Shown one piece after another: positions 33,100-38,811 of a stretch of DNA of 64,000 bases (position 1 is the first letter of the stretch; each line of letters starts with the position of its first letter). The notes under the pieces were generated by a model, which did no database searches, was not told the DNA's origin, and worked only from the letters and a program-made list of their open reading frames with translations. Both the position numbers and the translations under genes were made by a program. Source of the stretch: an uncultured Spirochaetales bacterium (GTDB lineage: Bacteria; Spirochaetota; Spirochaetia; Sphaerochaetales; Sphaerochaetaceae); NCBI GenBank assembly GCA_944390025.1, contig CALXOK010000003.1, forward strand, positions 1-64,000. The letters run 5' to 3'.

Positions 33100-35199
33100 T
33101 CAGAAGTCAAAAGAGAGCTGACCTTCCGGCTGGCTTACTTTATCATTTTTTCCATCATCTTGTCTCAGCATGGAAATGAATTCATCCTCACTCACTATTC
33201 TCACGCCAAGGCTCTCTGCCTGGGCACGCTTTGATCCACCGCCCTTTCCGGCAAGCAGATGGGTTGTCTTTCCCGTCACTGATGACACAGTGCGGGCTCC
33301 TCTCTTCTCCAGTTCCTTCAATGCCAGAGTGCGCGGATTGAAATGCTCGAATGAACCGGTCACAGCCCATACCTGACCGGAGAATGTCTGTTCAAGACTG
33401 TTCTCCTCCTCATGGCTTTCGAACTGGAGTCCGGCCTCTCTCAGACGGCTTATGAGGGATCTCATATCCTCATCCTGCAGTGCCGCGATGATCAGAGTCG
33501 CAGTCTGAAGCCCGATCTGCCCGATTCTCGTGAACGCCTCGATATCATTCTCGTCACTTGCCTTCAAAAGACGGTCTATGTCCGTAAAGCCGCCTTTGAC
33601 AAGAATCTCGGCTCCTTTAGTACCGACTTCCGGCAGACCAAGGGAAGCAAGAACCGTCACAAAAGGTCTCTTCTTCGATTCCTCCACAGCCTCCCGGAAA
33701 GACCTGACCATCTTCTCGCCATAGCCTTTCTCATCAAGAAGCCTGCTGAAATCGCAGGTGTAAAGGTCGCTTATATCACGTACAAGTCCCATGTCGTACA
33801 GCTTCTCGACAACCTTCGGGCCGATTGAATCCATGTCCATCTGGTCGCGGGACGTGAAATATGATATGCGGCCCTTGACCTGCTGGGGGCAGTTTCTGTC
33901 AGGGCAGAAGAGATGTGCACCCCTTTGAACGAGCCGTGCTCCGCAGGAAGGACAGAAGGGAGGAATTATGAAGGTCGTGTTCCCTTCCTCATTCTTCTCG
34001 AGAACCTCTTCCACGGCAGGAATGACATCGCCCCGCTTCACGACAGAGACAGTGTCACCCACCGCGAGTTCCAGCTCGTTTATATACTCCTGATTGTGAA
34101 GTGTCGCCCGTCTGACAACAGAGCCTCCCAGAGGAACGCTTTCCAGCTCTGCAACCGGCGTGATGCGTCCGGTACGTCCGACCTGGATGGTGACACCAAG
34201 AACTTTTGTAGTGGCCTGAGGAGACTCGAATTTGTATGCGATGGCCCAGCGGGGATGATGCTCCGTGTAGCCAAGAGCCTGTCTCACATCCAGCTCATTG
34301 ACCTTGGTGACCATACCGTCGATTTCGTATTCGAGGTCCTTCCTTTCCGCCGTCACTTCTTCCAGATAGCTCCCGAGACCATCGAAGGCATACGCCTTTC
34401 CTTCAAGACCGGCCTTGGAAAGAAGTTCCCGGGACTTCTCCTGTGATGATGAGAACACTGCGATATGTGGATTGATTCTGAAGCCGAGGTTTTTCAGCCT
34501 GGCGAGTATGGACAGATGGTCTTCCGGTCTCTGGCTCTCATCCTCCCAGAATCCTTCGTAGACGAAGATTGTCAGGGGCACGGCTGCAGCCTCGCTGCTC
34601 TTCTGTCTTCTGACAGTACCTGCGGCAAGGTTTCTTGCATTTGCAGCCTCAGGATTCGCCTCTTTCAGTCTCTCGAAATCCTTTTTAGGCAGATACACCT
34701 CTCCTCTGACGGCGATTGAAACCGGCTCGCTGAGTCTTAGAGGCACTGCCTTTATTGTCCTAATATTAGCGCTGACATCGTTGCCGACATAGCCGTTGCC
34801 TCGAGTCAGGGCACGAACGAATTCTCCGTCCTGGTAATAGAGGACCATAGATATGCCGTCAATCTTCTCTTCCTCGACGAAGGAAAGGGAGCTTGACGCG
34901 CTCTTCATGGTCTTGTCCATCCAGGAGATGACCTCCTCGCTGCTGTAGGCCTTGTCCAGCGAGAGAACGGGTATGGTATGAGCGACCTCGGGAAAGTCAC
35001 CGGAAAGATCGCTTCCAACCCTCTGGGTAGGGCTTGTGGCGCTCCTGTACTCCGGATGCTGGCTCTCGATACGGCTCAGCTCATCGAAAAGCCGGTCGTA
35101 CTCCGTGTCGCTCATCACGGGCCGTCCGTCAACATAATAGGCTTTCTGAGCTTTCAGCAGCTCATCAGTCAGCTGGTCTACCCTTTCCTTAAGCTCCAT
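33100..35199 (-). CDS. ligA: NAD+-dependent DNA ligase
   Basis: A 699-aa LigA that seals nicks during replication and repair. Domain Ia (YYVDGRPVMSDTEYDRL) precedes the adenylation domain, whose nucleophile is Lys112 in EEEKIDGISM; then the OB fold (VVKRGDVIPAVEEVL), a four-cysteine zinc finger (CPSCGARLVQRGAHLFCPDR), helix-hairpin-helix repeats and a C-terminal BRCT domain (SGQVWAVTGSF). Complete. Only about 20 nt separate its ATG from the iscB stop, and no ribosome-binding site is seen there, so the insertion of the IscB element may have replaced the native upstream region. Confidence 0.95.
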   Translation of the reverse strand: MELKERVDQLTDELLKAQKAYYVDGRPVMSDTEYDRLFDELSRIESQHPEYRSATSPTQRVGSDLSGDFPEVAHTIPVLSLDKAYSSEEVISWMDKTMKSASSSLSFVEEEKIDGISMVLYYQDGEFVRALTRGNGYVGNDVSANIRTIKAVPLRLSEPVSIAVRGEVYLPKKDFERLKEANPEAANARNLAAGTVRRQKSSEAAAVPLTIFVYEGFWEDESQRPEDHLSILARLKNLGFRINPHIAVFSSSQEKSRELLSKAGLEGKAYAFDGLGSYLEEVTAERKDLEYEIDGMVTKVNELDVRQALGYTEHHPRWAIAYKFESPQATTKVLGVTIQVGRTGRITPVAELESVPLGGSVVRRATLHNQEYINELELAVGDTVSVVKRGDVIPAVEEVLEKNEEGNTTFIIPPFCPSCGARLVQRGAHLFCPDRNCPQQVKGRISYFTSRDQMDMDSIGPKVVEKLYDMGLVRDISDLYTCDFSRLLDEKGYGEKMVRSFREAVEESKKRPFVTVLASLGLPEVGTKGAEILVKGGFTDIDRLLKASDENDIEAFTRIGQIGLQTATLIIAALQDEDMRSLISRLREAGLQFESHEEENSLEQTFSGQVWAVTGSFEHFNPRTLALKELEKRGARTVSSVTGKTTHLLAGKGGGSKRAQAESLGVRIVSEDEFISMLRQDDGKNDKVSQPEGQLSFDF

Positions 35200-35221
35200 A
35201 AATATTTCTGGCAGGGCACCG

Positions 35222-36481
35222 TCAGGCTTGTCCTGACGTGGGGAATGCCGGCCTCCTTGTTATAACATCCCCATTCGAGTGCCAGAGAAGGGTGAACTTC
35301 TTCCTCGGCACATCCGTTAAAGTCTTCGGAACGTCAAGAGGTTTGAGGCTGTACAATCCTCTCGTCTTCCTGGCGGTAACAATCATCTGTCTCCCGTCCT
35401 CGTGCTCTACGATGTCGTAACGGGCGATGCCCTTCACAAGCCTTGGTGCTTGGTTGCGTTTCAGCTTTCCGATTTTCGTGATGTTCTGCTTCATCACCTG
35501 GCGGTTATGGCAACGCACCTTCAGAATGTCGTATACGTTATCGGCCCTTTCCGCATTGAAATTCCCGGCGATGCAGAAGGCGTCATTGGTATGAGTCTTT
35601 TCAGCCTTCAGATTGTTTCTGTTCCAGTTCGTGACGTATCCGTAGGTTTGAATGACCGGGATATCAGGGTGGGTTTTCTTCAACCTGTCGAGAAGAAACC
35701 AGCGCATCGTGTTCATCGCTGTTGCTCCTTTGAAGCCTTTGTCCTCGGGAAAGGGGATGGCAAGCGGTCTCTTGCCGTTATGGTGGTTCTCATGGCATTT
35801 CTCGCAGAGCGTGATGAGGTTTGAGGGTCTGTCGGAACCGCCGTCATGGCGGTGGATGATGTGGTGCACCTCAAGATGATCATGAGAGCCACAACTCCAA
35901 CAGGTGAAGTTGTCTCTTGCCTTTACATATGCCTTGACGTTGGCATAGGCAAGCTGTTCTCCTTCCTGGTAGCTCTTGCCTTCGATGTTCTCATCCTTGA
36001 TTTTCTGGATATCGAAGGAAGCCGTCTCGACGACAATCTTCGAGACGGGCAGGATGGAGCAGATGTCGTTGATGGCGTTGACGTGAGACTTAATCTTGGT
36101 CTCCATCGTGGGAGTGAGCCAGCCGTCGGGCCTTCTCCTGTTATCGAAGCGTGGCTTGCGATAGCGGAGACGGTTTCTGCGTGTACGCCTCGACTGTCGA
36201 CGTGCAGTCATAAGCTGAGGAACATCGTTACGCAACGTCATCTCGGCGCTGAAAAGCTCCTCTTTCTTTGTCGAAGCGGAAAGCCCCACATGCTTCGAAC
36301 CGGCATCTACTCCGAGCGAGACAGGCTGCATACAGTGCGTCTCAGGCTCGTAGAGCAGTTGGATGGTGAAAGGGCATCTCTTCACGACCTTCGCCTGTTT
36401 CCTCTTCAGCAGCCACTTGACCTTGCCTTGGCGCTTTGTGGACATCAGCGGACGTCCGTCCTTGTCGATTACATAGACCAT
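35222..36481 (-). CDS. iscB: IscB RNA-guided nuclease
   Basis: A 419-aa IscB, the OMEGA nuclease ancestral to Cas9. In order: PLMP-type N-terminal domain (VYVIDKDGRPLMSTKR), RuvC-I SLGVDAGSKHVGLS with Asp59, an arginine-rich bridge helix (ARRQSRRTRRNRLRYRKPRF), RuvC-II KIVVETASFDIQ with Glu152, HNH domain CWSCGSHDHLEVHHIIHRHD plus CEKCH (about 194-230), and RuvC-III HTNDAFCIA with His297 and Asp300. All catalytic residues are present, so it should cut both DNA strands guided by its omegaRNA. AGGAGG lies before the ATG, at the end of the structured RNA region. Confidence 0.93.
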   Translation of the reverse strand: MVYVIDKDGRPLMSTKRQGKVKWLLKRKQAKVVKRCPFTIQLLYEPETHCMQPVSLGVDAGSKHVGLSASTKKEELFSAEMTLRNDVPQLMTARRQSRRTRRNRLRYRKPRFDNRRRPDGWLTPTMETKIKSHVNAINDICSILPVSKIVVETASFDIQKIKDENIEGKSYQEGEQLAYANVKAYVKARDNFTCWSCGSHDHLEVHHIIHRHDGGSDRPSNLITLCEKCHENHHNGKRPLAIPFPEDKGFKGATAMNTMRWFLLDRLKKTHPDIPVIQTYGYVTNWNRNNLKAEKTHTNDAFCIAGNFNAERADNVYDILKVRCHNRQVMKQNITKIGKLKRNQAPRLVKGIARYDIVEHEDGRQMIVTARKTRGLYSLKPLDVPKTLTDVPRKKFTLLWHSNGDVITRRPAFPTSGQA

Positions 36482-36767
36482 ATGGTCTCCTCCTGGACCT
36501 CTTTCGAGGTAATGCCGGGATTCCTCCCGGTTGTGACGTATCTCTCACCACTGTCCCGAGCCGATGTTATCCGACGGTTTGATGCATACGGCACTGCTCC
36601 TACCTGTCAGAGCTGTTTAACCATGCACCGCAGTGTCCGGAGCTGGAACGACACCCCGGAGTGCCTATGTATTCGCCGGTAACGGAGTTCAGAGCCGAAG
36701 CTCTTCACTTGGGCTGATCAAGCAAGGCTCTTGCAAGCCTACGGGTTCATCCCGTCAGGTGCTTGAT
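36482..36767 (-). ncRNA. IscB omegaRNA region
   Basis: The roughly 285 nt upstream of iscB are dense with stems on the coding strand: ATCAAGC/GCTTGAT closing a multibranch (36761-36767, 36717-36723) that holds ACGGG/CCCGT and GGCT/AGCC hairpins; AGAGC-TTCG-GCTCT (36691-36704); GTGTC/GACAC (36633-36654); CCGGGA-TTCC-TCCCGG (36515-36530); ACCTC/GAGGT (36497-36510). This position and layout match IscB omegaRNAs, which carry the guide at their 5' end. The guide should be the bases just 5' of the stem, i.e. the last codons of the GltD-like gene. Confidence 0.75.
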
Positions 36768-37983
36768 AAGTCACCCTGACATACTCATCCATGCTGCGTG
36801 CGACTTTCTTCGCGTAGTTCACAGCTTCGACGACAGTACGTGCACCAAGCACGACATCACCGGCAGCGAAGACTCCCGGATGAGTTGTCTCGCCCTTCTC
36901 GTCGGTAAGGAGAAGCCCGTTCTTGCTGGGCTTGAGGCCCTCTGTCGTGTCCACGAGCTTGCTCTTCGGGCCCTGGCTGATTGCAATGAAAGTCGTATCC
37001 GCCTCGAAAGGAATCTCCTCAGTACCCTCGCCTGTGATGTTTCCTTCCTCATCAACGACAGTCCTGACGAAAACCGGACCTGTTTTATCAATGCGGACAG
37101 GCTTGAGACAGTACTCGAACCTGGCCCCTTCAAGCATCGCATACTCAATCTCATCGCTGGATGCCTCGCTGACATTCCTTCTGGCGAAGATTGTCACCTC
37201 ATGCTTGCCGGGGAAGCGGAGAATCGTGCGGGCGACATCCATGGCCGTGTTTCCGGCTCCGATGATGGCGACAGAGCGTCCGACATTGTAAGCGGACGGG
37301 TTGACCAGGAAGTCGATTGCGAAGTGGACATTGCCCAGACTCTCTCCATGAATGGAAAGCTTCTTCGGCCTCCAGACACCGGTTCCGATGAAGATGGCCT
37401 TGTAGCCATCCCTGAAAAGATCATCTATGACAAGGGCTCCTCCGATTGTCGTATTCGGCCTGATGTGGATACCCATGGCCATGAGCCTGTCACGGTAACG
37501 GTCCAGAATGGACTTGGGAAGACGGAACTCGGGAATACCGTAGCGCAGGACTCCGCCGATCTTGTCGCGGGAGTCGAATATCGTGACATCGTAGCCCATG
37601 CGCCGCATCTCTATTGCGATTGTTATTCCGGCCGGACCGGCTCCGATGACGGCAATCATGTGCCCGTTGTCAGGTTGCTTGTCAATCTCGACAGTATCAA
37701 GGCAGGTCTCACTGATGTAGTTCTCGATTGATGATATATGGATTCCCTGACCCTTGCGGGCAAGCACGCAGTGACCTTCGCACTGACGCTGATGGTCACA
37801 CACGAGAGAACAGACGACAGAAAGCGGATTATTCTCGAAAAGCATCTTTCCCGCTTCCTTTATCCGGTTCTCCTTGAGCATCCTGATCATGACAGGAATC
37901 TGTGTTGAAATCGGACAGCCGGTCATGCACATCGGCTTCTTGCACTGCAGGCATCTGTCAGCTTCTTCAATGACATGTATCAT
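36739..37983 (-). CDS. GltD-like NAD(P)H:acceptor flavin oxidoreductase
   Basis: A 414-aa protein like the glutamate-synthase small subunit and NfnB/SudA. N-terminal cysteine clusters for Fe-S binding are CLQCKKPMCMTGCPI and CSLVCDHQRQCEGHCVLA; the FAD fold is VIGAGPAGITIAIEM, and the NAD(P) fold IIGAGNTAMDVARTI; GVFAAGDVVLGARTVVEAV closes the FAD site. No large subunit or partner is adjacent, so the acceptor is unknown. The last nine residues, YQAPDGMNP, and the TAG stop are coded by the left end of the IscB element, so the C-terminus was probably altered by insertion. GGAGG precedes the ATG. Confidence 0.88.
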   Translation of the reverse strand: MIHVIEEADRCLQCKKPMCMTGCPISTQIPVMIRMLKENRIKEAGKMLFENNPLSVVCSLVCDHQRQCEGHCVLARKGQGIHISSIENYISETCLDTVEIDKQPDNGHMIAVIGAGPAGITIAIEMRRMGYDVTIFDSRDKIGGVLRYGIPEFRLPKSILDRYRDRLMAMGIHIRPNTTIGGALVIDDLFRDGYKAIFIGTGVWRPKKLSIHGESLGNVHFAIDFLVNPSAYNVGRSVAIIGAGNTAMDVARTILRFPGKHEVTIFARRNVSEASSDEIEYAMLEGARFEYCLKPVRIDKTGPVFVRTVVDEEGNITGEGTEEIPFEADTTFIAISQGPKSKLVDTTEGLKPSKNGLLLTDEKGETTHPGVFAAGDVVLGARTVVEAVNYAKKVARSMDEYVRVTYQAPDGMNP

Positions 37984-38114: not shown

Positions 38115-38150
38115 TTCTCTAGTGAACTACTCTACCTTAGAAGGTGGAAG
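38115..38150 (-). other. right-end/reRNA-like segment of the TnpB remnant
   Basis: After the TnpB frame the minus strand reads through ACCTT-CTA-AGGT (a short hairpin covering the stop codon) and then GTAGAGTAGTTCAC. A hairpin followed by such a tail is how IS200/IS605 right ends and TnpB guide-RNA 3' ends look. If still made, the guide would begin near TAGAGAAGCACC at about 38121 and run downward. Confidence 0.45.
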
Positions 38151-38811
38151 CTTCGCCCTTCAACGGTCCATGACAACCGAGATTGCCTTTTATGAAGGCG
38201 TTTTCAATTGCTCTGCGGATCTCAGGTGCGCTTGTTTCGGTGCGTCCCACACCTACTTTGTTTTCATAGAACCAGATTATGTTGCGTGCGGCATGGACAT
38301 CCCTGTCCATCTCATCAGAACCAAAGTCACAACGATAGACCCTGTCCTTAAGGGAAAGACTGTTCAGCTTCCCGCAATGAGGACAGAATCTCGTACTCGG
38401 TACTGCCTTGTTGAGAACTACGACATCATCTCTCATTATCAGATCACTTTTCACTCTAGCCCCGTTCATGGCACTTTCCTTCAGGTCACTGTACTCGTCC
38501 AGCACCACGATTGTCCGTCTGTTCTGGGCGGCGATGAATGTGAAGGCATCCACCATAGTACGGAAAGCGGGCATGGACCGTATCCCGAAGGCCAGACCAA
38601 CCGAATTTGAGAATTCCTCAAGATTGATTTCAAGTGCAACCTTATGGAATTCATGGCTTATGATTACAGCGTCCTGGATTTCTTCAAGCACTTCGCGGAC
38701 AATCGACGTCTTGCCTATCCGCCTTCATCCATACAGCAGTATTGATGCCTTCTTTCCACTTGTCAGCTTTCCTTTCAGAAGCTCCTTTTCCTTTTCTCGT
38801 GCAATGAACAT
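38137..38811 (-). pseudogene. broken AAA-type ATPase gene fused to TnpB C-terminal remnant
   Basis: From an ATG at 38811 the frame reads MFIAREKEKELLKGKLTSGK and ASILLYG, then an in-frame TGA (38725-38727), then RRIGKTSIVREVLEE. This is the P-loop of an archaeal-type/DUF234-like ATPase with the usual tryptophan codon TGG changed to TGA. The frame continues through VVLDEYSDLKES and switches about 75 residues on to the C-terminus of an IS605 TnpB: STRFCPHCGKLNSL, YRCDFGSDEMDRDVHAARNI. The second zinc pair has lost a cysteine. Neither half can be functional as read. It marks decay of a TnpB element inserted in an ATPase gene. Confidence 0.75.

What the first reader, a model, noticed from the sequence alone, without database searches (positions are those of the whole stretch)
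35220..36800. Intact IscB OMEGA system with a readable omegaRNA and a predicted self-site guide
IscB keeps all RuvC and HNH catalytic residues, and the ~285 nt upstream fold into many stems typical of omegaRNAs. As the guide sits 5' of the scaffold, it should be copied from the last codons of the GltD-like gene just beyond 36767 (about 36768-36785). That would direct cleavage to the empty version of this same gene end, favouring element retention.
Basis: partly seen in the sequence, partly recalled or inferred. Interest (0 to 1): 0.75.

Follow-up and report, generated by a model that had tools for sequence, protein, structure and literature searches.

The report
IscB transposon inserted at ligA start
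The window holds an intact mobile element that encodes IscB, an RNA-guided DNA-cutting enzyme ancestral to Cas9, wedged exactly in front of the start codon of the DNA ligase gene; it and its sister copies mostly sit between a gene's ribosome-binding region and its start codon, so each copy's guide RNA appears to be read from the site it invaded.

Summary
Window 35200-36767 (minus strand) is a 1,568-bp IscB element: HEARO/omegaRNA (RF02033, 104.8 bits), then intact iscB (NF040563, 344 bits), then a right end with a hairpin. Its last base abuts ATGGA, the native start codon of ligA, so the boundaries are 35200-36767, not 35220-36800.

Elements in the same genome and in relatives share this anatomy. 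Most start GTCAA, and all 25 right ends placed here abut ATGR; 23 of those are gene starts. Left flanks are enriched in Shine-Dalgarno sequence. iscB mostly ends -4, -1 or 20-24 nt from the host ATG.

The self-site guide idea is supported for sister copies by orthologous empty sites: at hflK-hflC 15 of 16 guide-proximal bases match an empty site followed by ATGA; at ebfC-recR the reconstructed junction aligns without gaps. It is not shown for this copy: relatives have 40-91 nt between the conserved gltD end and ligA where this copy has 7, so a left-side deletion may have changed the guide. No other target exists in the genome sequence held.

Verdict: a new member of a known kind (IscB/OMEGA). 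The ribosome-binding-site-as-guide, start-codon-as-TAM anatomy is the interesting part. Cleavage was not tested.

The parts
35200..36767 (-). whole IscB/HEARO element (1,568 bp), inserted between gltD-like gene and ligA
   Evidence: 99% identical copy in contig C2 and a 73%-protein copy in C3 share these ends with different flanks
36538..36767 (-). omegaRNA scaffold (HEARO, RF02033); first base A where sister copies have G (GTCAAGC)
   Evidence: cmscan 104.8 bits, full model 1-211
36768..36787 (-). predicted guide region, 5'-TGAGTATGTCAGGGTGACTT-3' (16-20 nt), last codons of gltD-like gene with Shine-Dalgarno-like GGGTGA
   Evidence: host flank directly 5' of the scaffold; guide role from the known IscB layout; not tested here
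35222..36481 (-). iscB, 419 aa, RuvC/HNH residues kept
35220..35238 (-). right-end hairpin CGTCAGGACAAGCCTGACG, overlapping the iscB stop
   Evidence: sequence; conserved in the three iscB-bearing own copies
35195..35199 (-). target / predicted TAM ATGGA, which is also the ligA start codon
   Evidence: ATGR at 25 of 25 placed right ends; ligA start in 15 genus mates
33100..35199 (-). ligA, NAD-dependent DNA ligase, start codon 22 nt after the iscB stop
   Evidence: Pfam; spacing
36739..37983 (-). gltD-like oxidoreductase ORF; its native C-terminus was cut at 36768 and it now ends inside the element

Best explanation
This is an intact, non-autonomous IscB (OMEGA/HEARO) insertion element. Shown: it lies immediately 5' of the ATGGA start of ligA, and its sister copies mostly lie exactly between a gene's ribosome-binding region and its ATGR start. 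Inferred: a Y1 transposase acting in trans inserts the element next to the bottom-strand motif YCAT (top strand ATGR). A transcript of the upstream host gene runs through the left flank and the scaffold, giving an omegaRNA whose 5' guide is the sequence next to the start codon, and IscB uses ATGR as its 3' TAM. IscB would then cut chromosomes that carry the empty site, and repair from an occupied copy keeps or spreads the element. The occupied site is spared because the scaffold (ATCAAG here, GTCAAG elsewhere) sits where the TAM would be. Placing the iscB stop -4, -1 or about 22 nt from the host ATG probably lets ribosomes re-initiate on the downstream gene, so the insertion is tolerated.
For: IscB and HEARO identity. 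Four HEARO loci in the own genome, three with iscB. Shared ends, unrelated flanks. ATGGA is host. Empty orthologous sites: ebfC-recR; hflK-hflC, where the reconstructed junction restores the hflK stop and matches an empty G007 site at 15 of 16 bases next to ATGA. A YczE-like gene is rejoined in frame by leaving out the element in G008. 25/25 placed right ends at ATGR, 23 at gene starts, against 2.1% of ATGR sites overall and 23% of non-coding ATGR sites in the window. Shine-Dalgarno 4-mers in 24 of 39 left flanks against 27.5% in control windows, p about 9e-6. iscB stop spacing.
Against: The empty site of this particular copy is not seen in any relative, and the local gene spacing differs. No transposase lies in the element; Y1 transposases are elsewhere in the genome and not shown to act on it. 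No promoter was found by the consensus scan. Some right ends were located by the ATG next to the end, which favours ATGR in copies without a paired relative. Nothing here shows RNA processing or cleavage.
Confidence: 0.75

Rival explanations
1. This copy has lost its original left flank. A deletion of roughly 33-84 bp between gltD and the element removed the ligA promoter region, so the present guide is gltD coding sequence that never stood next to a TAM; this copy would not cut the original empty site.
For: Seven mates with gltD-ligA synteny all have 40-91 nt between 'YVR' and the ligA ATG against 7 here, and six keep a TATACT box there. The first scaffold base is also changed (A for G).
Against: Distance from the gltD stop to ligA varies from 7 to 79 nt among mates, so an overlap in this species is possible. 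The reconstructed junction GGGTGA-CTT-ATG is a plausible ribosome-binding site and gives gltD a natural stop (YVRVTYGA*). Sister copies show exact insertions.
Confidence: 0.35
2. The copy is partly an assembly chimera: two nearly identical copies (here and contig C2) were merged in their middle, so the iscB core and the 3' half of the omegaRNA shown here may belong to the other copy. This is compatible with the main explanation.
For: All 14 differences between the two copies lie in the first 145 and last ~72 positions; none in the 1,355 between, as expected if only reads anchored in unique flanks kept the copies apart. One omegaRNA stem pairs a 5' arm of the C15 type with a 3' arm of the C2 type.
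Against: Gene conversion between copies gives the same pattern. The reading frame and the covariance-model match are intact.
Confidence: 0.3
3. The element is immobile and has been kept as a regulator of ligA, for instance by RNA-guided binding near start sites.
For: It sits at the start of an essential gene; no transposase in the element.
Against: Nuclease residues are kept, copies sit at several unrelated genes, and a near-identical second copy is in the genome.
Confidence: 0.04

Closest known systems
OgeuIscB / OMEGA IscB systems (PDB 7utn, 7xht)
   Same: PLMP, split RuvC and HNH domains with the same catalytic residues; omegaRNA 5' of iscB; 5' guide, 3' TAM. ATGR falls within the NWRRNA TAM recalled for OgeuIscB (PMC13180657 gives NWRGNA as the better form).
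   Different: 419 aa instead of about 496; the C-terminal TAM-interacting part does not align; the TAM here is inferred only from insertion sites.
HEARO RNA elements (Rfam RF02033) and HEARO nucleases such as MG35-1 (PMC9755519)
   Same: Same RNA family; iscB with little TnpA association, as PMC9755519 reports for HEARO; MG35-1 is 429 aa and active. The ATGA/GTGA insertion preference noted when HEARO was first described (from memory, paper not held) agrees with ATGR here.
   Different: The position between ribosome-binding site and start codon, and the fixed spacing of iscB stop to host ATG, were not found in the papers I could search.
IS200/IS605 TnpB elements with self-targeting retention (Meers et al. 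2023, from memory)
   Same: Same proposed logic: guide copied from the flank, TAM equals the transposase target, cutting of the empty site.
   Different: IscB instead of TnpB; guide and TAM order reversed; no tnpA in the element.

Membership tests
IscB (OMEGA nuclease) | curated family model match | tested here: met
   NF040563 344 bits, cut-off 175
IscB (OMEGA nuclease) | split RuvC with inserted HNH, catalytic residues kept | tested here: met
   D59, E152, H206/H207, H297/D300 aligned to OgeuIscB
IscB (OMEGA nuclease) | N-terminal PLMP domain | tested here: met
   PLMS at 11-14, aligned with PLMP of OgeuIscB
IscB (OMEGA nuclease) | omegaRNA 5' of iscB | tested here: met
   RF02033 over its cut-off, 56 nt before iscB
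IscB (OMEGA nuclease) | RNA-guided DNA cleavage with a 3' TAM | not testable with these tools
   TAM only inferred from insertion sites
Self-site guide (retention by cutting the empty site) | guide matches the unoccupied site next to the TAM, this copy | tested here: inconclusive
   no conspecific empty site; relatives differ in spacing
Self-site guide (retention by cutting the empty site) | guide matches the unoccupied site next to the TAM, sister copies | tested here: met
   hflC and recR orthologous empty sites
IS200/IS605 insertion sequence | Y1 transposase in the element | tested here: not met
   no such ORF in 35200-36767; Y1 genes lie elsewhere
IS200/IS605 insertion sequence | subterminal hairpins, no target duplication | tested here: met
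   hairpins at both ends; gap-free reconstructed junctions in sister copies
IsrB (nickase without HNH) | HNH absent | tested here: not met
   HNH present

The most novel reading that the evidence does not exclude
HEARO/IscB elements of this group exploit translation start sites: the host ribosome-binding region becomes the guide, the start codon (ATGR) is TAM and insertion target, the same ATG or ATGA can complete the iscB stop codon (-1 or -4 overlap), and termination-reinitiation or a right-end ribosome-binding site keeps the host gene expressed. Because such sites are conserved between species, a guide can match the empty site in another species and could support homing after transfer.
Probability: 0.5. 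Interest if true: 0.65.

Novelty: new member of a known kind. Interest (0 to 1): 0.48.

Why it matters
It gives a natural IscB family with four element copies in one genome, two of them nearly identical, and interpretable guides, and a testable rule for where such elements land and why hosts tolerate them. If the rule holds, insertion flanks alone predict the TAM and guide of each IscB, which helps the choice of compact genome editors and gives a clean test of whether IscB helps its element persist.

Tried and rejected
Folding energy as proof of an omegaRNA (z -1.33) was dropped in favour of the covariance model. A second genomic target of the guide: none with up to 3 mismatches. Y1 transposase loci were checked for IscB-like ends; no adjoining iscB element was seen. 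A direct empty gltD-ligA site was sought in all 15 genus mates and not found. Literature: the only paper that held IscB, start codon and Shine-Dalgarno together concerns a Shigella secretion system; the original ISC, HEARO and OMEGA papers are not held. No structure prediction was run because solved IscB relatives align directly.

Full report
Observation. The finding is correct in substance. iscB (35222-36481, minus strand, 419 aa) is open and intact, matches Pfam RRXRR and HNH and the curated NCBIfam model for RNA-guided endonuclease IscB (344 bits, cut-off 175). Against OgeuIscB in the PDB (E about 1e-45) the RuvC residues D59, E152 and H297/D300 and the HNH histidines 206/207 are kept, and the N-terminal PLMP motif is present. 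Upstream, Rfam HEARO (RF02033) matches 36538-36767 over its whole length at 104.8 bits.

Element boundaries. The own genome holds four HEARO loci, three with iscB. The copy on contig C2 is 99% identical to the window copy over the element, and a second copy on C3 encodes a 73% identical IscB; identity ends at the same points in unrelated flanks. The left end is GTCAAGC (ATCAAGC in the window). The three iscB-bearing copies run ...GAAATATTTATGGA at the right. ATGGA is host sequence: ligA starts ATGGA in all 15 genus mates, none of which has the element there. The element is therefore 35200-36767, and its last base abuts the ligA start codon. The three other own insertions abut the ATGGA starts of recR, a Wzz-like gene and an aminotransferase; gene names other than those from Pfam are my reading of the translations. 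The fourth copy (C15) has HEARO but no iscB.

Pattern in relatives. I read 20 further HEARO/IscB loci from seven genus mates and a second set from the wider family, one other family of the class and named genomes. Of 25 right ends I could place, all abut ATGR (17 ATGA, 8 ATGG) and 23 are the start of an ORF; the exceptions are an internal ATGA of a YczE-like gene in G008 and a non-genic site in G007. At least one degenerate copy (G284 C27) appears to end at ATAAG instead and is not among the 25. In the window only 33 of 1,566 ATGR sites are ORF starts (2.1%), and 33 of 143 outside ORF interiors (23%), so the preference is not explained by the motif or by avoidance of gene interiors alone. The left flanks carry a Shine-Dalgarno 4-mer within 18 nt in 24 of 39 elements against 27.5% in nearby control windows (p about 9e-6); the copies are not all independent. 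Caveat: some right ends were located by the ATG itself; groups with shared ends and different flanks (own copies; G007_C2/G011; G015_C1a/G243/G288/G284_41; G001/G012/G008_C28) fix the boundary independently.

iscB and the host gene. In copies with an intact iscB end the stop codon overlaps the host ATG by -4 (ATGA) or -1 (TGATG), or lies 20-24 nt before it; the Clostridiales copy has 63 nt, and two divergent copies have a broken frame. In the overlapping forms the host ATG or ATGA supplies part or all of the iscB stop. In the window the distance is 22 nt. Inference: termination-reinitiation, or a ribosome-binding site in the right end in some families (for example GGAGGATTT-ATG, GGAGAATTTT-ATG), keeps the downstream gene translated.

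Self-site guide. For sister copies the prediction can be checked against orthologous empty sites. In G008 the junction left after leaving out the element between hflK and hflC restores the hflK stop and reads ATCTGGGAGGTGCGAA-ATGAAG; the empty site of G007 reads ATCTGGGAGGTGCAAA-ATGAAA, 15 of 16 bases. For the own recR copy the reconstructed ebfC-recR junction aligns without gap to the empty G015 site, with ebfC overlapping recR in both. In G008 a YczE-like gene is rejoined in frame. So in these cases the flank next to the scaffold equals the empty site next to ATGR.

This copy is less clear. In the seven mates with gltD beside ligA the stretch between the conserved 'YVR' and the ligA ATG is 40-91 nt, in six with a TATACT box; here it is 7 nt. 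Either this species had gltD overlapping ligA (the reconstructed GGGTGA-CTT-ATG is a good ribosome-binding site, and the gltD stop to ligA distance varies from 7 to 79 nt among mates), or a deletion has replaced the original left flank. Only a conspecific empty allele can decide. The guide plus ATG has no other match in the own genome at up to 3 mismatches; the genome is 85.6% complete. At the occupied locus the TAM position reads ATCAAG, not ATGR, so the element would not cut itself.

Assembly caution. The window copy and the C2 copy differ at 14 positions, all within the first 145 or last ~72 bases; the 1,355 between are identical. This is expected from gene conversion, and equally from an assembler or polisher merging two copies beyond read length. 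One omegaRNA stem combines a 5' arm of the C15 type with a 3' arm of the C2 type, which fits either cause; the folded model still forms this stem in another register.

Mobility. No transposase lies in the element; four Y1 transposase matches lie elsewhere in the genome, one of them partial. HEARO nucleases are reported to be rarely associated with TnpA (PMC9755519). Movement in trans is inferred.

Comparison with the known. By family, RNA, domain layout and residues this is an IscB/OMEGA element. Self-targeting retention is an established proposal for these transposons (from memory; papers not held). OrufIscB works best with about 14-15-nt guides and down to 13 (PMC13180657); MG35-1 prefers 24-bp spacers (PMC9755519). 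I found no paper held that describes the ribosome-binding-site/start-codon position, but the founding papers could not be read, so I do not claim novelty for it beyond this search.

Noticed in passing
window 38140-38691 (-): ORF whose C-terminal part matches TnpB/Cas12f1-like TNB (IS607/IS605 TnpB C-terminus) while its N-terminal part looks like unrelated, ATPase-like sequence: a TnpB remnant one gene away from the IscB element.
   Followed up: partly
window 36623-36767 and 35209-35267 against L009: All differences between the two near-identical copies cluster at the two ends; 1,355 central bases are identical (gene conversion or assembly merge).
   Followed up: partly
L011 4121-4477; L091; L159: HEARO-only elements (no iscB, about 350 bp) inserted at ATGR start codons like the full elements; they may be mobilised and served by IscB in trans.
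   Followed up: partly
L093 (G008 C36): HEARO element whose left flank is the end of a flavodoxin-like gene and whose right flank is a tyrosine-recombinase gene start; the flanks do not look like one ancestral site, possibly recombination between copies.
   Followed up: no
L069-L076 upstream of ligA: In most genus mates ligA has a TATACT box about 6-12 nt before its ATG and no clear Shine-Dalgarno, which suggests leaderless transcripts in this genus.
   Followed up: no
L012 1-154: A truncated HEARO at the edge of own contig C21 (76% over 156 nt), probably a fifth copy cut by the assembly.
   Followed up: no
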